NCBI RefSeq assembly: GCF_010537335.1
Contig: NZ_AP019711.1
Coordinates: 1,054,001-1,118,000 of the forward strand
Direction: 5' to 3'
Origin: Amedibacterium intestinale
GTDB taxonomy: Bacteria; Bacillota_I; Bacilli_A; Erysipelotrichales; Erysipelotrichaceae
Length of the DNA stretch: 64,000 bases
The notes under the pieces were generated by a model. It searched no databases. It had not been told where the DNA came from and was given only the letters and a program-made list of their open reading frames with translations. Position numbers and translations under genes: made by a program. Of the stretch, positions 27,584 through 33,804 are shown piece by piece (position 1 is the first letter of the stretch; each line of letters opens with the position of its first letter).

Positions 27584-27608
27584 TAAAAAAACCGAGATAA
27601 TTCTCGGT
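27584..27608 (-). terminator. intrinsic terminator of the TPR-like membrane gene
   Basis: CCGAGA / TCTCGG stem followed by a T-run on the minus strand, starting at the stop codon of the gene at 27608. Confidence 0.88.
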
Positions 27609-28867
27609 TATGCTTCTTCTGCTTTTTCTACACGTTCAATAGAACGCATAAATTCTTTTGCCTTATTTACAAAGAACATTGTATTCCCCTGTTCAATAAC
27701 CATTGTAAAATGACGTGCCGCTACATAAATATCTTTTTGAACAAAGGCAATCAAACCTAAATAGTAATTTGCATCCACTTTCTGAAAACGAAAACCTGCA
27801 GAAGATAACAGTCCTTTATAAAACTGTTCTGCTTTATCAAAATCCTGTTCCATTAAAGAAAGTTTATTCTGAATAGCTGTCAATGTTTGCAGGCGAATAA
27901 TTCCAAGAGGCCCATTCATATTACGTATTGGCAGTTTTTCACTTTCATCAAAATGATGCTGAACCATACCTTTATCACCTAACTGATAATACGCATATGC
28001 CATTAAAGAATGATATGCATACTGCAAGCCATTTTTATTTTGCATATTTCCAGAAGCCATAATATCGATCGCAAGATGAGGATCATCAAGATAAATCATA
28101 CATTGTGCCATCTGCTGGATTAATGGAAAGTTTTTCTTTCTATGAGATTTATGAGCTAAAGCAAAAATAGCACTTGCACAGGCAAGAGGATCACATTGAT
28201 CATAAAGCAAAGAAACAATTGGCTGAAGCATCATGCTTTTTCTTTTTGTAATCTGGAAAACGAGCATAAAATATAACATCATGCACAACAATACAACCAT
28301 GGTATTTTTAACATACACAAATACTAAAAGAGAAGCAAGAGCACCTATAATATACAAAACATTCGCAATCAGCATATTTTTCCAGATCTTCCCTGCAATT
28401 TCTTCATATTGTTCATCATATTTATGATGCAAACGGAAAACTCTTTCTATTTCCTTTACACTATTTAATGAATCTTTATTCAGCTGTCGTTTTTTTCCTC
28501 TGTTAGGAACCGTTATCCATCCATATAAATAAATGATTATACATATTGGCAAACCAATCGTACCAGCAACAATTGCAATTTCTCCTCCACCCAGCATCAA
28601 AATCAAAAAAGTTACAAAAAAGCTTAAATTAAAACGCTGCATAACAAGAAAAAACAAGTTGATTCCATTTATGATACCGGCAAATGTAATTGCCCCTGTA
28701 ATATAGGGAATAAGCGCATTATTTATGATTGCAGGATCATCCGTATACACTTTTAGTGTTTCTTTAATCATATCATGTTCATAACCAAGCAATCCAAATA
28801 TAATAGCTCCTGCAACAGCACCTAGCAAGATATAAAACAATTGTTTTTTACATTGATATTTCCACAT
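27608..28867 (-). CDS. membrane protein with C-terminal helical-repeat (TPR-like) domain
   Basis: 419 residues from the ATG at 28867, chosen because AAGGGG lies 7 nt upstream; another ATG at 28873 is too close and a longer frame has no site. The first 240 residues contain about six to seven membrane helices in two groups, split by a cytoplasmic stretch (NSVKEIERVFRLHHKYDEQYEE). The rest is a soluble helical array resembling tetratricopeptide repeats (YHSLMAYAYYQLGDKGMVQHHF, ANYYLGLIAFVQKDIYVAARHF). I do not recognise the family. It is a single gene between two terminators. Confidence 0.62.
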   Translation of the reverse strand: MWKYQCKKQLFYILLGAVAGAIIFGLLGYEHDMIKETLKVYTDDPAIINNALIPYITGAITFAGIINGINLFFLVMQRFNLSFFVTFLILMLGGGEIAIVAGTIGLPICIIIYLYGWITVPNRGKKRQLNKDSLNSVKEIERVFRLHHKYDEQYEEIAGKIWKNMLIANVLYIIGALASLLVFVYVKNTMVVLLCMMLYFMLVFQITKRKSMMLQPIVSLLYDQCDPLACASAIFALAHKSHRKKNFPLIQQMAQCMIYLDDPHLAIDIMASGNMQNKNGLQYAYHSLMAYAYYQLGDKGMVQHHFDESEKLPIRNMNGPLGIIRLQTLTAIQNKLSLMEQDFDKAEQFYKGLLSSAGFRFQKVDANYYLGLIAFVQKDIYVAARHFTMVIEQGNTMFFVNKAKEFMRSIERVEKAEEA

Positions 28868-28954
28868 AAACATACCCCTTTTATTATCGTATAGTAATAT
28901 ACCACAATTATGAAAAAATCGAAAGGGGTCTAGCTTTTTTCTACTATCTTCACA

Positions 28955-28994
28955 TAAAAAACGTTTTTCTTCCCATAAAAAGAAGAAAAACATT
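28955..28994 (-). terminator. intrinsic terminator of the NanE-GRE operon
   Basis: ATGTTTTTCTTC / GAAGAAAAACGT stem followed by TTTTTT on the minus strand, immediately after the activase stop. Confidence 0.88.
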
Positions 28995-28998
28995 TCTA

Positions 28999-29895
28999 TT
29001 ATCCCCCTATTTCAACATCAAATCCAAGATCTTGTGCATATAAACGATAACTTGATAACTCCTCTTCTTTCATCATAGAAGTTTCCATAGTATAAAGTTT
29101 CCCCATTTTTTCATACTTTGGTTTTCCCAATGTATGATATGGCAGAAGATGTAACTTTTTTACTCCTAAATCTTGTAAATAATGAAATGTCTTTTTTAAA
29201 AGTGCTTCTTCAAAATTGAATCCAGGAATAATTGGTATACGAACGATTACTTTATCAGGACAAGTTTTTAACAGCCACGTAAGATTTGCCTTGATTCTTT
29301 TCCCATTTCCAGCAGTAACTTTCTTTAAACGAATATTATCCAAATGTTTAAAATCGTATAAAAACAAATCCAGATAAGGTTCTGCTTCCCTTATTCTTTC
29401 AAAGGGTACATCTCCTGTTGTTTCTACTGCAGTAGATATATTTTTTTGTTTACACATCTTTAACAGATGCAAAAGGGAGGAAAACTGCACAAAAGGCTCT
29501 CCGCCACTAAAAGTAACGCCTCCTCCACTAGCGTCATAATAGTCTTTATCTTTTAGAATTTCCTCTAAAACATCCTCTTCCTTCCAATTTTCACCATTAA
29601 AGCTTATTGCATCCTGCATACATACATTTTCACACGTTCTGCAAAGAATACATTTTGTCTGCTCATAGTGCATATGTCCATTTACAAAAGATAAAGCTTT
29701 AGAAGGACAATGGTTTATACATGCTTTGCATGCAACACATTTAGAAGCTGTATACATAAAAACCGAATGTATACTTTGTGTTTCCGGATTTGCACACCAT
29801 GGACAATGCATTGGACAGCCTTTCAAAAATACCGTTGTTCGAATGCCGGGACCATCATGTGTCGCAAATTTTTCAATATTTGTTATATTAATCAT
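28999..29895 (-). CDS. glycyl radical enzyme activating protein (radical SAM)
   Basis: 298 residues, the activase for the adjacent glycyl radical enzyme. The radical SAM cluster motif is C27-x3-C31-x2-C34 in GCPMHCPWCAN. It is followed by a ferredoxin-like insert with two [4Fe-4S] motifs (CVACKACINHC at 53-63 and CILCRTCENVC at 82-92), as in activases of glycerol, choline or hydroxyproline-type GREs but not of classical PFL. FSGGEPF follows. The gene overlaps the GRE by 8 nt (stop within ATGATTAA), so the pair is co-translated. It uses SAM to make the glycyl radical on G735 of the enzyme numbering given below. Confidence 0.95.
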   Translation of the reverse strand: MINITNIEKFATHDGPGIRTTVFLKGCPMHCPWCANPETQSIHSVFMYTASKCVACKACINHCPSKALSFVNGHMHYEQTKCILCRTCENVCMQDAISFNGENWKEEDVLEEILKDKDYYDASGGGVTFSGGEPFVQFSSLLHLLKMCKQKNISTAVETTGDVPFERIREAEPYLDLFLYDFKHLDNIRLKKVTAGNGKRIKANLTWLLKTCPDKVIVRIPIIPGFNFEEALLKKTFHYLQDLGVKKLHLLPYHTLGKPKYEKMGKLYTMETSMMKEEELSSYRLYAQDLGFDVEIGG

Positions 29896-32158
29896 ACAAT
29901 GTCCTGCTTAACAATTCATCTTGAATATCTTTTGTTAAATTCACAAAAACAGCACTATATCCTGCCACGCGGACTATCAAATCTGGATACTTTTCCGGAT
30001 GCTTTTGTGCATCTTCCAAAACCCCATGATCAACAACGGTTACCATTAGCTGACATCCACCCTTTTTAAAATAAGTGTCAAACAAAATTTTTATTTTATC
30101 TCTATCCTGCTGAAACATACGTGGTGTAAATTTCATGTTCTGTACACTTCCACCATGATATTTAGCCTGAAACGTTGCCAGTGAATTTAAACAGGCAGTC
30201 GGTCCACTTTTGGCTGCTCCTCCTTGCGGATTATTTGCAGGATTCATAAATACTCCACTTTTTCTTCCATCAAGACTTGCGGATGTCTGATGTCCCCAAT
30301 CCGTATTAGTCTGATTATTAGAAATCACAATCAGATAATACCCTAATCCATGATTGATCCCTCTTTGACGTATACCTTTCGCAACATATTCATACAAATC
30401 ATTGGCAAGTGCATCACATTCTTTTTTATCATTTCCATATTTATCCTGTGCCAGTAAATCCTTACGAATATTTTCATATCCTTCAAAGTTATGCAGCATT
30501 GCTTCTACAAGCTGCGATAACGTATATTTCTTTTCTGTATACACAAGCTGTTTGATTGCCCACAAAGCATCGCTTGCATTAATGTTTCCATAAGTTTCAT
30601 TTGTTCCTCCTAATATCTCAACACCGCCATCCAGCAATGCCTTGCCTCTTCCAATACAGTCATCCATTAAAATAGAAGTATACAGAAATGATACACATGC
30701 ATTCATTACTTTATAAGAATGTACTTGTGCCTCCACACTTAAATCAAAATAATAAGCAAGCAGTTCTTTATATTTATCATATAACATTTCAAAAGTAGTA
30801 AACGTAGAACAATCTTCTATAACAACAGGGCCTGCTTTATATTTATGATCCATAGGATCAATTCCTTTATTTAATGTAATATTTAAAAGCTTTAGCAGGT
30901 TCAATAAAGTATTTGGTGTACCAACGCTTTTTCCCTGAATAACAAATTCTCCGCACCCAAAAGGAACATACTGCATAGCAACTTCTCTTGTAATACGCAT
31001 ACCATACATTAGCGCATCAACATTTACATCATCATTATACAAGGTAGGATAGGTTGCTCCACTTCCTATACAGTCATATGCCATATCCATGATATCCTGT
31101 GGGGTATCTTTACTGAAGCGAAGAGTAAACTGTGGTTCTACATAACGTGTATCGCGACATACTTTTAAACAGATTCTCGCAAATGTATCTGCTTCCTTAG
31201 GGTGTTCTCTTCCTACTCCTCCCACAATAATGCGTCCATTGACCGTCGTTCTTCGATTTTCAATCATTTTCCATAAAGAGCGAACATAACGATACGCCTC
31301 CTGCTCACTTATAACTCCTGTATCTAAGTCATGTTGTAAAAAAGGACCCAGTACATCATCCATTCGACCATAATTGATAACCCCTGCACACAAAGCATAT
31401 AGCCAAAACAACTGCAAAGCCTGATGAAAGGTAGATGGTTTATTGGTACATATATATACCAAATCCTTTTCCATCAAATCCAAATCTTTTTTTCTTGTTT
31501 CATCTGCTGTTTTTTTCGCTTCCTGAACAAGAGAAATTTCTTTTTGAATAACTTCCTGCAATAATTCCATTGCTTCATAGCTGCATTTTAAAAATTCATT
31601 TTGCGGTTTACTGGAAATTAATGTCTTTAATCCTTCCAATCCATAGTTCATCAATCTTTTATAATTTAACATCATACCAGATAAACGAGCAGTTGCCATA
31701 AAAGGATATGCACAATCAATGAAACGACCAGTGGTATCTTGTGTCAACACATCCTGACAATAAATAGATTTTGTATCATGATCTTGCCAGTAATCGTATA
31801 AAACATCTACTCTTGCTTTTTCTTCATCTGTAGAAAGAAGTGTCTTAAATGCTCTTAATTTATGAAAGACACAATAATGTCCGACTCCTCCAATACTTGT
31901 CACACTTCCAAAACCGATAGGAAGAAAGTCTAAACGTCCTGCAAGCAAATCATCATTTTCAATAGAACGAAACAATGCAGGAAAAATTGTCTTTAAACAA
32001 TTGATTTCTCTTCTGGCTTTATCCATCCCCTCACTATCTTTATGTGCTTTGGTATAAGCCTCCATAATTTGCAGTTGCTCCTGCGGTGTTTTTTCACATG
32101 GAATGGGTTTGGATACTTCTACATTTTGTTCTCCATCAATATTGATTTTCTTTTTCAT
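29888..32158 (-). CDS. glycyl radical enzyme (PFL-like family), substrate unknown
   Basis: 756 residues from the second of two near ATGs (32158), because GGAAGG abuts the first at 32164. Numbering here counts from the first. The radical site is RVAGYSAVF with G735, and the thiyl cysteine is C404 in PFGCGEF with E406 two residues on. The C-x-E arrangement is that of dehydratase/lyase GREs (CutC, glycerol, propanediol and hydroxyproline dehydratases), whereas PFL has Cys-Cys. The subclass cannot be named by eye. Neighbours are a NanE-like epimerase and an activase with a ferredoxin insert, suggesting anaerobic elimination on a sugar-derived substrate. GREs are cytoplasmic and oxygen-sensitive. 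Confidence 0.93.
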   Translation of the reverse strand: MKKKINIDGEQNVEVSKPIPCEKTPQEQLQIMEAYTKAHKDSEGMDKARREINCLKTIFPALFRSIENDDLLAGRLDFLPIGFGSVTSIGGVGHYCVFHKLRAFKTLLSTDEEKARVDVLYDYWQDHDTKSIYCQDVLTQDTTGRFIDCAYPFMATARLSGMMLNYKRLMNYGLEGLKTLISSKPQNEFLKCSYEAMELLQEVIQKEISLVQEAKKTADETRKKDLDLMEKDLVYICTNKPSTFHQALQLFWLYALCAGVINYGRMDDVLGPFLQHDLDTGVISEQEAYRYVRSLWKMIENRRTTVNGRIIVGGVGREHPKEADTFARICLKVCRDTRYVEPQFTLRFSKDTPQDIMDMAYDCIGSGATYPTLYNDDVNVDALMYGMRITREVAMQYVPFGCGEFVIQGKSVGTPNTLLNLLKLLNITLNKGIDPMDHKYKAGPVVIEDCSTFTTFEMLYDKYKELLAYYFDLSVEAQVHSYKVMNACVSFLYTSILMDDCIGRGKALLDGGVEILGGTNETYGNINASDALWAIKQLVYTEKKYTLSQLVEAMLHNFEGYENIRKDLLAQDKYGNDKKECDALANDLYEYVAKGIRQRGINHGLGYYLIVISNNQTNTDWGHQTSASLDGRKSGVFMNPANNPQGGAAKSGPTACLNSLATFQAKYHGGSVQNMKFTPRMFQQDRDKIKILFDTYFKKGGCQLMVTVVDHGVLEDAQKHPEKYPDLIVRVAGYSAVFVNLTKDIQDELLSRTLYD

Positions 32159-32170
32159 ATACATCCTTCC

Positions 32171-32920
32171 TTAATGTTTTGCTTTTTCTGCATCCCGCCA
32201 ATTATGCTGATATCCGCTTAATAAATCTACAAATCGCTTTGCCGTTAAATGCGGACGTGTAATCGCACTTCCCACTACTACCGCATGTGCCCCTAAATAG
32301 ATGCATTTCATCGCATCTTCTGGTGTATATAAATGCCCTTCCATCATGATATATGCATCCTCTTTAAAATCTCTGCATATTTTCGCAAACATACGATAAT
32401 CGGCTCCTTCAATATTCGCTGTTTCTTTTGTATAGCCATATAATGTCGGTGCAACAATATCAGCACCATGTTCCACTGCATGTTTTGCCTCTTCATAATT
32501 AGAAACATCCGCAAAAATGATTGCTTCCGGAATTTCCTTTTTTACCTGATCCAGTAAATCCCATGCAACTGTTTTTTCATGTGTTATCTGTGCTGTACAA
32601 TCCAAGGCAATAATTTCCGCTCCTGCTTCCCATACTGCTTTTGCCGCATCTAATGTTGGTGTAATAAATACATCGCTGTCTTCATACCATATTTTCCATA
32701 ATCCAATTATTGGCAAATCTACCTTTTCTTTAATTGCTTTGATTTGTTCTGGTGAATTGGCACGAATTCCAACTGCTCCTGCCCATTTTGCAGCTTCTGC
32801 CATTTTGACAACCATATCTTCTGTGTAAATTGGATCATCTTTTTGTACCTGGCAAGAAACAATTAAACCATCTTTCATTCCCTCCAGCAATGCTTTTTTT
32901 CTTTCGTCTGCTGTTTTCAT
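32171..32920 (-). CDS. NanE-like N-acylglucosamine-6-phosphate 2-epimerase
   Basis: About 249 residues; of three consecutive ATGs (32926, 32923, 32920) the last has the best spacing to GGAGG. Numbering here counts from 32926. It is a TIM barrel with the NanE catalytic set: Q26 in VSCQV, R55 in GIRAN, K78, D109 in ALDCT, E196 in MMEG, and R224 in AITRP. NanE interconverts ManNAc-6-P and GlcNAc-6-P in sialic acid use. Here the residues after the catalytic lysine are unusual (LWKIWYED rather than the common VKRDYPD), and no NanA, NanK, NagA or NagB lies nearby. A related sugar phosphate as substrate is therefore possible. It is the first gene of the GRE operon. Confidence 0.85.
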   Translation of the reverse strand: MKTADERKKALLEGMKDGLIVSCQVQKDDPIYTEDMVVKMAEAAKWAGAVGIRANSPEQIKAIKEKVDLPIIGLWKIWYEDSDVFITPTLDAAKAVWEAGAEIIALDCTAQITHEKTVAWDLLDQVKKEIPEAIIFADVSNYEEAKHAVEHGADIVAPTLYGYTKETANIEGADYRMFAKICRDFKEDAYIMMEGHLYTPEDAMKCIYLGAHAVVVGSAITRPHLTAKRFVDLLSGYQHNWRDAEKAKH

Positions 32921-32955
32921 CATCATTCCTCCAATAGGTGTTTCTCTTTACTCTC

Positions 32956-33017
32956 AATATACTTCACACTTCGCTATTTGTCAATCCATTTTGATTCATA
33001 TCGATTCATTTTGAATC
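32956..33017 (-). promoter_or_regulatory. promoter with paired DeoR-type operators for the NanE-GRE operon
   Basis: TTGACA (32979-32984) and TATATT (32956-32961) are 17 bp apart on the minus strand. Upstream and over the -35 lie two 15-bp elements, GATTCATTTTGAATC (33003-33017, a GATTC/GAATC dyad) and AATCCATTTTGATTC (32983-32997, imperfect). Their centres are 20 bp apart, two helical turns, which suits cooperative binding by the adjacent DeoR regulator. Confidence 0.78.
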
Positions 33018-33047
33018 TAAAAAAATAAGAGGGCGTTCCCTCTTATC
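33018..33047 (-). terminator. intrinsic terminator of the DeoR gene
   Basis: ATAAGAGGG / CCCTCTTAT stem with loop AACG, followed by T7 on the minus strand. It insulates the regulator from the operon promoter immediately downstream. Confidence 0.92.
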
Positions 33048-33804
33048 ATTTACATACAATAAAATTATCCGGAAGATTTCCTTCTACTTCCTCATCTGTA
33101 AAAACTAGATCAAACTGTTCCAAATTTGCCCATGTTGCCAGTGCCTGTATAGATAACTTGCTTTTATCTGTCAAAAGATAACATTCTCTACTTCTTCTTA
33201 ATACTTCTTCTTTCACAGCACCTATGGAAAAATCAACACTCATGACTTCTCCATTTGTTAAATCGATTCCACTTGCGGAAAAAAAGGCTTTATCAAAATG
33301 AAATTTACGAATCATTTCCAAAGTATGATAGCCTGTACTCATATCATAACCGATATTGAATTCCCCTCCTACCAGGTATATTTCTCCACGAAAATCCATT
33401 GGAAGTTTCCTTACAATATAGGTACTTGGTGTAACCAGCTTAATATCTTTATGATGCAGATACTCTAAAAGATAGCTGGGAGTCGTTCCACTGTCTACAT
33501 ATATACAATCTCCATTCTGAATTCTTTCTGCTGCACGCTTGCAAATTCTTCTCTTTTCTTCTCTGTGAACATATTCTTTTTCACGAACCGGAATCTCTTT
33601 TAAATTATTAAGTGTTTCTTTCATTTCCACTTTCATAGCGCCTCCACGCTCTCTTTTTACAAGTCCCTGTCGCTCTAATTCAATCAAATCTCGATTGATC
33701 GTAGACTTTGATACCCCAAGCTGCTGTATCAATTCTTGAATCGTCACAAACGAATGCGAATTCAATATATTCATAATTCGAAGCATTCTTTCCTTTGAAA
33801 GCAT
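33046..33804 (-). CDS. DeoR-family transcriptional regulator
   Basis: 252 residues. The N-terminal HTH has ERMLRIMNILNSHSFVTIQELIQQLGVSKSTINRDLIELERQGLVKRERGGAM. The C-terminal DeoRC sensor domain (about 75-240) has DSGTTPSYLLEYL and LVGGEFN, the phosphosugar-binding type. It lies just upstream of the NanE-GRE operon, same strand, separated by a terminator and by two operator-like elements, so it probably represses that operon until a sugar phosphate accumulates. Confidence 0.93.
   Translation of the reverse strand: MLSKERMLRIMNILNSHSFVTIQELIQQLGVSKSTINRDLIELERQGLVKRERGGAMKVEMKETLNNLKEIPVREKEYVHREEKRRICKRAAERIQNGDCIYVDSGTTPSYLLEYLHHKDIKLVTPSTYIVRKLPMDFRGEIYLVGGEFNIGYDMSTGYHTLEMIRKFHFDKAFFSASGIDLTNGEVMSVDFSIGAVKEEVLRRSRECYLLTDKSKLSIQALATWANLEQFDLVFTDEEVEGNLPDNFIVCK

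What the first reader, a model, noticed from the sequence alone, without database searches (positions are those of the whole stretch)
32171..32920. NanE-like enzyme with an altered loop next to the catalytic lysine
All catalytic residues known for NanE are present (Q26, R55, K78, D109, E196, R224), but the common VKRDYPD after the lysine is LWKIWYED, and the segment after the catalytic Glu reads GHLYTP rather than G(K/R)INTP. Changes so close to the active site, in a gene tied to a GRE, suggest a different sugar phosphate than ManNAc-6-P.
Basis: partly seen in the sequence, partly recalled or inferred. Interest (0 to 1): 0.55.

Follow-up and report, generated by a model that had tools for sequence, protein, structure and literature searches.

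The report
NanE-like epimerase tied to radical enzyme
A gene labelled as a sialic-acid-pathway sugar epimerase belongs to a separate branch of that family that travels with an uncharacterised oxygen-sensitive radical enzyme in bacteria of several phyla, which points to an undescribed route for using some sugar phosphate whose identity is still unknown.

Summary
The gene is a NanE-fold protein: its AlphaFold model matches solved NanE at Z 26-29. All six SaNanE catalytic residues are present, but the catalytic Asp is D140, not D109. The loop after K78 is not a quirk of one protein: among 54 NanE at loci of the partner enzyme, position 80 is Trp in 53 and position 79 is never basic. I76L, M138F, T160P, A195M, H198 and Y200 change with it, and a C-terminal tail (WRxAE) is added.

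This branch is co-inherited with one uncharacterised glycyl radical enzyme (GRE) family. The GRE is in 33 of 34 genomes of the order that carry the variant NanE and in 0 of 42 tested that do not. Conversely, variant NanE is in 73 of 81 genomes found through the GRE, over four phyla. The host also has an ordinary NanE with the KRNYPD loop.

Partners include a ROK kinase (18 of 81 loci) or a PTS, so the pair probably works on a hexose 6-phosphate. I read NanE as a gluco-to-manno C2 epimerase feeding the GRE. The sugar is not identified, and ManNAc-6-P is not excluded. New variant of a known kind.

The parts
32171..32920 (-). NanE-like C2 epimerase (249 aa from the third Met; 251 aa ORF to 32926)
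   Evidence: PF04131 174 bits, NF002231 250 bits; AF2 pLDDT 87.5, NanE structures Z 26.0-28.9
32678..32701 (-). codons of loop LWKIWYED (residues 76-83, catalytic K78)
32321..32341 (-). codons of EGHLYTP (residues 196-202, catalytic E196)
32174..32221 (-). codons of the C-terminal tail (residues 236-251, NWRDAEKAKH) typical of the GRE-linked branch
   Evidence: Q240, W243, R244, E247, H251 invariant in 31 rows; WRxxE then His in 52 of 53 GRE-locus NanE, the 53rd (L137) has WRTAE with the His further on; lacking in 8 of 8 full-length NanE outside the GRE-linked branch that were compared
29888..32164 (-). glycyl radical enzyme, 758 aa (C404, E406, G735), starts 6 nt after the NanE stop
   Evidence: PF02901 394 bits, PF01228 92.5 bits; below the curated cut-off of all 12 NCBIfam models that it matched; GRE fold, best Z 34.1
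28999..29895 (-). radical-SAM GRE-activating enzyme, overlaps the GRE by 8 nt
   Evidence: TIGR02494 318 bits over cut-off 174
33046..33804 (-). DeoR/GlpR-family regulator
   Evidence: PF00455 133 bits, PF08220 53.5 bits; a DeoR of the same cluster in 34 of 81 loci
32956..32984 (-). promoter-like TTGACA-17-TATATT before NanE (11 of 12)
   Evidence: a consensus match only, in a region with fewer such sites than its shuffles (21 against a mean of 29.5)
32981..33017 (-). two 17-nt near-repeats, 20 nt apart, touching the -35 box: candidate operator
   Evidence: motif 7.6-fold denser upstream of module genes, but 2 or more copies in only 3 of 34 DeoR loci
33024..33047 (-). terminator-like hairpin after the DeoR gene

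Best explanation
The gene encodes an aldohexose-6-phosphate C2 epimerase of the NanE fold. It works with the GRE and activase encoded in the same operon. Proposed mechanism: a kinase (ROK) or a PTS delivers a sugar 6-phosphate. The NanE-like enzyme uses K78 as the base at C2, R55/Q26/D140 around the C1 enolate, and E196 with the C5 hydroxyl to reprotonate, which interconverts the gluco and manno forms. The manno form, with an axial C2 substituent, is the substrate of the GRE. The activase makes the glycyl radical at G735, C404 becomes a thiyl radical, E406 acts as base, and a group next to the abstracted hydrogen is eliminated. The bulkier residues at W80, F138, P160, Y163 and M195 suggest a C2 substituent other than acetamide, possibly just OH. 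Shown here: fold, conserved catalytic residues, gene order, co-inheritance, kinase/PTS partners. Inferred: the reaction, its direction, and the order of the two enzymes. The sugar itself is unknown.
For: Catalytic residues and fold. Co-inheritance with one GRE family: 33/34 versus 0/42 genomes; 64/81 loci plus 9 genomes elsewhere, 73/81. Distances of the two proteins correlate over 50 loci (Mantel r 0.64, 0 of 2000 permutations), and 47/50 pairs are on the same strand. ROK kinase in 18 of 81 loci, in 7 of them exactly as ROK-NanE-GRE-activase. The three ROKs scanned score best on a glucokinase model, at 254-255 bits under its cut-off of 260. Mannose-family PTS genes beside NanE-GRE in Listeria immobilis, two Enterococcus and a Clostridiales MAG (by clustering) and in L055; families were scanned for L091 and L055 and lie below the curated cut-offs. 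Of 8 GRE genomes without the variant, three loci (L087, L113, L117) have a fructose-family PTS beside the GRE. In Epulonipiscium (L117) the order is EIIA-EIIB-EIIC-GH38-GRE-activase; the GH38 is mannosylglycerate-hydrolase-like (596 bits, under the cut-off of 1138). GH38 at 46% or more, L117's own included, occurs in 3/8 of these and in 0/17 NanE-bearing genomes tested. That fits a manno-configured GRE substrate. A mannose-6-P isomerase gene lies between GRE and activase in L119. Precedent for GREs on hexose-6-P analogues: 8id0 and 8id7 are PflD and YbiW with anhydromannitol-6-P and anhydroglucitol-6-P (titles).
Against: No activity is known for either protein. Acetamide-contact residues are kept (Y165, F87). 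A gene of the glucosamine-6-P isomerase/6-phosphogluconolactonase family (PF01182) lies beside the module on the other strand in 2 of 81 loci (L142, L143), which could mean amino-sugar use. No phosphate site was shown in the GRE. The manno argument rests on few NanE-less genomes, two of them Epulopiscium relatives, and several of the eight are MAGs that may be incomplete. The pocket-size argument is from sequence, with no ligand model. In 4 of the 33 co-occurring genomes (G114, G125, G136, G167) the GRE is divergent (44-49%); in G167 and G125 it lies by a 46-48% NanE without the tail, not by the variant. If the substrate were plain Glc-6-P/Man-6-P, a 2-epimerase would duplicate PMI plus GPI, so some unusual sugar is needed and I cannot name it.
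Confidence: 0.4

Rival explanations
1. It is still a ManNAc-6-P/GlcNAc-6-P epimerase, with an altered loop only because it docks to the GRE or has a different dimer contact; the GRE then acts on an N-acetylhexosamine 6-phosphate.
For: All six catalytic residues plus the acetamide-contacting Tyr are kept; passes the NanE subfamily cut-off, 250 over 189 bits; the C-terminal tail goes with the GRE-linked branch, as a docking element would; a PF01182 gene (glucosamine-6-P isomerase/6-phosphogluconolactonase) lies beside the module in L142 and L143.
Against: The host already has an ordinary NanE of the C. perfringens type; several positions conserved in each set switch together. PF01182 is near the module in only 2 of 81 loci by similarity to these two genes; nagA and nanA were not searched for.
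Confidence: 0.24
2. It epimerises an N-substituted 2-amino-2-deoxyhexose 6-phosphate (Heyns-type sugar-amine adduct), and the GRE is a C-N lyase that releases the amine.
For: A row on the same side of the tree (L056, 54% identity) sits with PTS genes (read by eye) and two SIS proteins, one scoring on GlmS and fructoselysine-6-P deglycase models, the layout that I recall from the gfr operon. GREs that cut C-N bonds exist (CutC, HplG).
Against: I saw no SIS deglycase in the GRE operons (neighbours were clustered and read by eye, only some scanned). Several GRE loci carry glycoside-cleaving genes (GH94-like, GH31, GH38, 3-keto hydrolase) that such adducts would not need.
Confidence: 0.15
3. The order is reversed: the GRE first makes an aldose 6-phosphate or related carbonyl compound, and the NanE-like enzyme then corrects C2 so that PMI or an aldolase can use it.
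For: A PMI gene between GRE and activase in L119; DeoC beside some modules.
Against: Variant NanE was not found in 8 of 81 GRE genomes, easier to explain if NanE is an upstream adaptor. The six residues fit a C1 aldehyde with the phosphate at C6, and a GRE elimination that leaves such a product with a C2 stereocentre is hard to write.
Confidence: 0.12

Closest known systems
[quoted passage not shown] aureus 6vva/7mfs, C. perfringens 4utt/4utw, F. nucleatum 5zkn)
   Same: Fold (12 NanE entries, Z 26.0-28.9, 31-38% identity; e.g. 1yxy Z 28.7, rmsd 1.9 over 214 residues), six catalytic residues, VGSAITR motif, Tyr149 equivalent
   Different: Loop after the lysine lacks the basic residue; L76, W80, F138, P160, Y163, M195, H198, Y200; C-terminal tail; sits with a GRE
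PflD and YbiW, GREs on 1,5-anhydromannitol-6-P and 1,5-anhydroglucitol-6-P (8id0, 8id7; pathway recalled from a 2024 JACS paper not held here)
   Same: GRE fold, Cys-x-Glu, glycyl loop; work on hexitol 6-phosphates
   Different: 24-26% identity, tied with many other GREs in fold score; the partner I recall there is an Fsa-type aldolase, here a NanE-type epimerase. GCGE/GCTE and GTPN replace GCVE and GLHD of 8id0
Glycerol dehydratase, propanediol dehydratase, CutC, HypD
   Same: Z 33-34 to the GRE model, rmsd 2.6-3.0 over about 700 residues; Cys and Glu kept
   Different: 24-26% identity; no His in the stretches aligned with GDH His164 and His281, and Asn aligns with Asp447 (GDH numbers recalled)
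Anhydroglycolysis-like cluster in the same genome (GRE, AE, Fsa-like, Fe-alcohol-dehydrogenase-like by eye; L033)
   Same: Same genome, GRE-based
   Different: Different GRE (28% identity), no NanE among those four genes

Membership tests
NanE (PF04131 / NF002231) | Score over curated cut-off | tested here: met
   PF04131 174.3 over 27; NF002231 250 over 189
NanE (PF04131 / NF002231) | Six active-site residues Q11 R40 K63 D124 E180 R208 (SaNanE) | tested here: met
   31 of 31 rows
[quoted passage not shown]
   Leu instead of Ile at 76 in 31/31; Z is I22/V8/Q1, basic in 0/31. 7 of 21 other NanE of the order also lack a basic Z
NanE (PF04131 / NF002231) | Signature Val-Gly-(Ser/Gly)-Ala-X-Thr-Arg | tested here: met
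   VGSAITR invariant in 31 rows
NanE (PF04131 / NF002231) | TIM-barrel fold of NanE | tested here: met
   Best 12 rows are all NanE, Z 26.0-28.9, next family 21.4
NanE (PF04131 / NF002231) | ManNAc-6-P epimerase activity | not testable with these tools
   needs enzyme assay
Glycyl radical enzymes (PF02901 + PF01228) | Domains, glycyl loop, catalytic Cys and Glu, activase nearby | tested here: met
   C404, E406, G735 invariant in 25 rows
Characterised GRE equivalogs in NCBIfam (HypD, CutC, HpfG/HpsG, PRK09983, IAD, HPAD, PFL) | Score over equivalog cut-off | tested here: not met
   HypD 275 of 1100, CutC 246 of 1050, PRK09983 227 of 1109 and so on
Anhydroglycolysis (PflD/YbiW type) | Fsa-type aldolase next to the GRE (recalled feature) | tested here: not met
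   none seen among the window ORFs around the operon; Fsa-like genes seen in L033, L035 and L037 sit with a different GRE

The most novel reading that the evidence does not exclude
NanE-like epimerase plus GRE form an undescribed anaerobic route for a hexose derivative. The NanE fold has been re-tuned from an N-acetylamino sugar to another C2-epimerisable hexose 6-phosphate, and sets the C2 stereochemistry so that a GRE can eliminate a neighbouring group. The C-terminal tail couples the two enzymes or closes the active site. The route is spread over Bacillota, Bacteroidota, Spirochaetota and Actinomycetota and is annotated as sialic-acid metabolism plus pyruvate formate lyase.
Probability: 0.37. 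Interest if true: 0.78.

Novelty: new variant of a known kind. Interest (0 to 1): 0.58.

Why it matters
A public Parabacteroides distasonis record names this protein N-acetylmannosamine-6-phosphate 2-epimerase and its partner a pyruvate formate lyase family protein. If the reading holds, both labels mislead maps of sialic-acid use and fermentation in gut bacteria. It would also add a case, besides YbiW/PflD, of GRE chemistry on a hexose 6-phosphate, in cultured bacteria where it can be tested. The tight pairing means each enzyme's substrate constrains the other's.

Tried and rejected
Substrate search from gene neighbours gave no single answer. Seen: GH94-like 733 aa protein (7 loci), AraC regulators, 3-keto-disaccharide hydrolase with Gfo/Idh and xylose-isomerase-like genes in Bacteroidales, one PMI, DeoC, HPS/PHI with corrinoid methyltransferases, GH38, two PF01182 genes. 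Considered and not adopted: O-methyl sugars with methanol as leaving group, mannosylglycerate aglycone as the GRE substrate, 1,5-anhydrosugars (no aldehyde for NanE), plain Glc-6-P/Man-6-P (would duplicate PMI plus GPI).

Three further proteins that I took by eye for PMI-like (L054:8347-9294, L201:13289-15034, L038:5568-6515) gave no Pfam hit, so I do not count them; L042's scored 111.5 under the PMI cut-off of 116.2.

Loop alone as evidence: rejected, because W before K also occurs in 4 of 21 other NanE.

The 31 GRE-linked rows are not one side of a branch. Three PTS-linked rows (L056, L058, L059) and three deep rows (L054, L055, L063) fall among or beside them; all 37 together are one side of a branch with support 98/96.

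The gap in the tail columns of the 21 control NanE is an artefact of fetching only the matched stretch. The tail was compared on full-length ORFs instead. Of the eight full-length NanE without it, two (L049 first copy, L064) lie near a 47-48% GRE, so the tail does not go with every GRE of the wider family.

My simple ORF caller hid NanE under antisense ORFs: 54 loci by ORF, 64 by tblastn.

The 42 control genomes were picked by me from the 162 without the variant at 57% or more; two of them (G026, G054) carry a 46% PTS-type NanE. Two genomes with 55% copies (G175, G191) were not tested.

Structure models do not give ligand geometry here. The GRE model ties with 26 entries (Z 32.9-34.1), so it names no closest function.

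Literature: searches found no paper in the held open-access library that links NanE with a GRE (listings only). The two papers holding both words mention them apart (passages). The library lacks most subscription papers, so this is not proof of absence.

Full report
1. What is there. The ORF at 32171-32926, minus strand, is open, 251 aa, and scores as NanE in Pfam and NCBIfam. It lies 6 nt before a 758-aa glycyl radical enzyme (GRE), which overlaps its activase by 8 nt. A DeoR regulator lies upstream, followed by a terminator-like hairpin, two 17-nt near-repeats and a TTGACA-17-TATATT promoter-like site before NanE. The 461-aa ORF after the activase matches no family, and a terminator-like hairpin follows it at 27609-27590.

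2. The residues. Using SaNanE as the yardstick (Currie 2021, PMC8482478; abstract and passages), all six active-site residues are present: Q26, R55, K78, D140, E196, R224. Two residues that stand where SaNanE touches the acetamide or its surroundings are kept (Tyr149 = Y165, Phe72 = F87). The loop after K78 is LWKIWYED. S. aureus and C. perfringens NanE read VKRDYDHSD and IKRNYDDSE there.

3. It is a branch, not a quirk. A search of 196 genomes of the order (a capped list of places) gave a clear split: variant NanE at 57-100% identity in 34 genomes (in G047 as two halves), a few at 46-55%, and ordinary NanE at about 44% or less. The window's genome has one of each; its ordinary NanE (42% identity to the variant) is of the C. 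perfringens type (314 bits). Against 21 other NanE of the order, 31 family members switch together at I76L, M138F, T160P and A195M, with W80, Y163, H198 and Y200 nearly or fully fixed. Y87F also separates the two sets, but SaNanE itself has Phe there. Position 79 is never basic in the 31, while 14 of 21 others are basic. Over all 54 variant NanE of the GRE loci, position 80 is W in 53. 53 of 53 NanE ORFs with that end carry WRxxE near the C-terminus, 52 of them followed within a few residues by His; in 41 that His is the last residue. Eight full-length NanE outside the branch lack the tail.

4. Fold. AlphaFold2 on 31 aligned relatives gave pLDDT 87.5; the only segment of three or more residues under 50 is 239-243, in the tail. 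The twelve best structural matches are all NanE entries (Z 26.0-28.9); the next family is at 21.4. A maximum-likelihood tree puts the 31 GRE-linked rows, three deeper rows and three PTS-linked rows on one side of a branch with support 98/96, and the ordinary NanE plus two other PTS-linked rows on the other.

5. The partner. The GRE keeps C404, E406 and G735 (25 of 25 rows) but falls far under the curated cut-off of all 12 NCBIfam models it matched. Its model ties with glycerol dehydratase, propanediol dehydratase, CutC, HypD and PflD (Z 33-34). It has its own conserved stretches (GGVGH, ENRRTTVNGR, VEPQFTLR, PFGC(G/T)E, GTPN). The first two overlap low-confidence loops in the model (86-96, 305-309), which I read as substrate loops; that is inference.

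6. Co-inheritance. A scan of GTDB species genomes with the GRE profile found 155 relatives, of which the best 80 were kept. With the window this makes 81 loci. Variant NanE lies within the fetched stretch in 64 of 81. In 9 of the other 17 it is elsewhere in the genome, so 73 of 81 carry it. In the reverse test within the order, the GRE family (44% identity or more) is in 33 of 34 genomes with the variant (G080 is the miss) and in 0 of 42 genomes without it. 14 of those 42 have other GREs at 36% identity or less. Of the 33, G194 is a 100-aa contig-end fragment, G136 and G047 are in two pieces, and in four (G114, G125, G136, G167) the GRE is divergent at 44-49%. The 42 were picked from the 162 genomes that lack the variant. 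Over 50 loci with both genes the two distance matrices correlate (Mantel r 0.64, 0 of 2000 permutations), 47 pairs are on one strand and 35 are immediate neighbours by my ORF call. Organism names in the record titles span Bacillota, Bacteroidota, Spirochaetota and Actinomycetota.

7. What the neighbours say. A ROK kinase is in 18 of 81 loci, in 7 exactly as ROK-NanE-GRE-activase. Three were scanned and score best on the glucokinase model, at 254-255 bits under a cut-off of 260. Mannose-family PTS genes follow NanE-GRE in Listeria immobilis, two Enterococcus and a Clostridiales MAG (L091, L099, L103, L118), and precede it in L055 (L091 and L055 scanned, below curated cut-offs). Both kinds deliver a sugar 6-phosphate, in line with the kept phosphate site of NanE. 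Among the eight GRE genomes without the variant, three loci have a fructose-family PTS beside the GRE. In Epulonipiscium viviparus the order is EIIA-EIIB-EIIC-GH38-GRE-activase, the GH38 scoring as mannosylglycerate hydrolase below cut-off. GH38 at 46% or more is in 3 of 8 such genomes and 0 of 17 NanE-bearing ones. This is modest evidence that the GRE takes a manno-configured sugar and that NanE makes it from a gluco-configured one. Against it, or at least open: a PF01182 gene (glucosamine-6-P isomerase or 6-phosphogluconolactonase family) stands beside the module in L142 and L143. It could speak for an amino sugar, or for a sugar lactone as the GRE product.

8. Mechanism proposed. NanE: K78 takes the C2 proton of the open-chain 6-phosphate, R55/Q26/D140 hold the enolate, E196 with the C5 hydroxyl reprotonates. 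This is the SaNanE scheme of Currie 2021, carried over because the residues are kept. GRE: thiyl radical on C404, base E406, loss of a neighbouring group. The steps in the GRE and the identity of the sugar are inference. I put 0.40 on the general reading and cannot name the sugar. Ordinary ManNAc-6-P chemistry stays possible (0.24).

9. Position. Filed as a NanE-family member with one published signature not met, and as a new variant. The GRE is a member of the GRE superfamily and of no named family tested. No paper in the held library was found that links the two.

Noticed in passing
L033:13421-17427 (own genome C1, about 1669420-1673426), with L033:11526-12677: A second GRE operon (GRE 796 aa, activase, Fsa-like aldolase; an Fe-alcohol-dehydrogenase-like gene follows; named by eye) near the ordinary NanE: looks like the anhydroglycolysis type. 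One search shows three other GREs besides the window's in this genome.
   Followed up: partly
L056:7006-13920: A NanE on the same side of the tree with mannose-type PTS genes (by eye) and two SIS proteins, one scoring on GlmS and fructoselysine-6-P deglycase models; the layout resembles what I recall of the gfr operon. Possible epimerase for sugar-amine adducts.
   Followed up: partly
L049:16481-19901, L052:86-9278, L072:10463-14568, L107:14179-22249: Variant NanE (or, in L107, the GRE) close to 3-hexulose-6-P synthase/isomerase-like genes and/or corrinoid-protein-like, UroD-like methyltransferase and activator-like genes (few of them scanned); recurrent, unexplained.
   Followed up: partly
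L142:15239-15961, L143:13210-13923: PF01182 genes (glucosamine-6-P isomerase/6-phosphogluconolactonase family) beside the module on the other strand, 33% identical to each other; which of the two activities they have could tell amino sugar from lactone.
   Followed up: partly
L058:6594-12840 and L059: PTS genes (by eye), NanE-like, DUF3604 protein and an SGSH-type sulfatase in a row (Pfam run on L058 only): perhaps a sulfated amino sugar route.
   Followed up: no
L063:9484-10212: A NanE copy near the variant (64% identity) that has T and N where the catalytic R55 and D140 stand, and lacks the tail; no GRE among the ORFs called in its stretch.
   Followed up: no
L120, L133, L134, L193 (Bacteroidales): The module beside an AraC regulator and a 3-keto-disaccharide-hydrolase/Gfo/xylose-isomerase-like operon (L120 Gfo at 689 bits to 8tdf). 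The same AraC cluster also sits at modules without that operon (L130, L138).
   Followed up: partly
L115:13065-15266 and 6 other loci: A 733-aa protein weakly similar to GH94 (33 bits) that recurs beside the module; the Prevotella copy (L138) seems to have a signal peptide. No close solved structure.
   Followed up: partly
L194 (Persicobacter plasmid pPP4): A 39% identical GRE with activase beside a malectin-domain protein and GH20, and no NanE annotated in the stretch.
   Followed up: no
window 27608-28993: 461-aa membrane-like ORF after the activase with no family match, just before a terminator-like hairpin.
   Followed up: no
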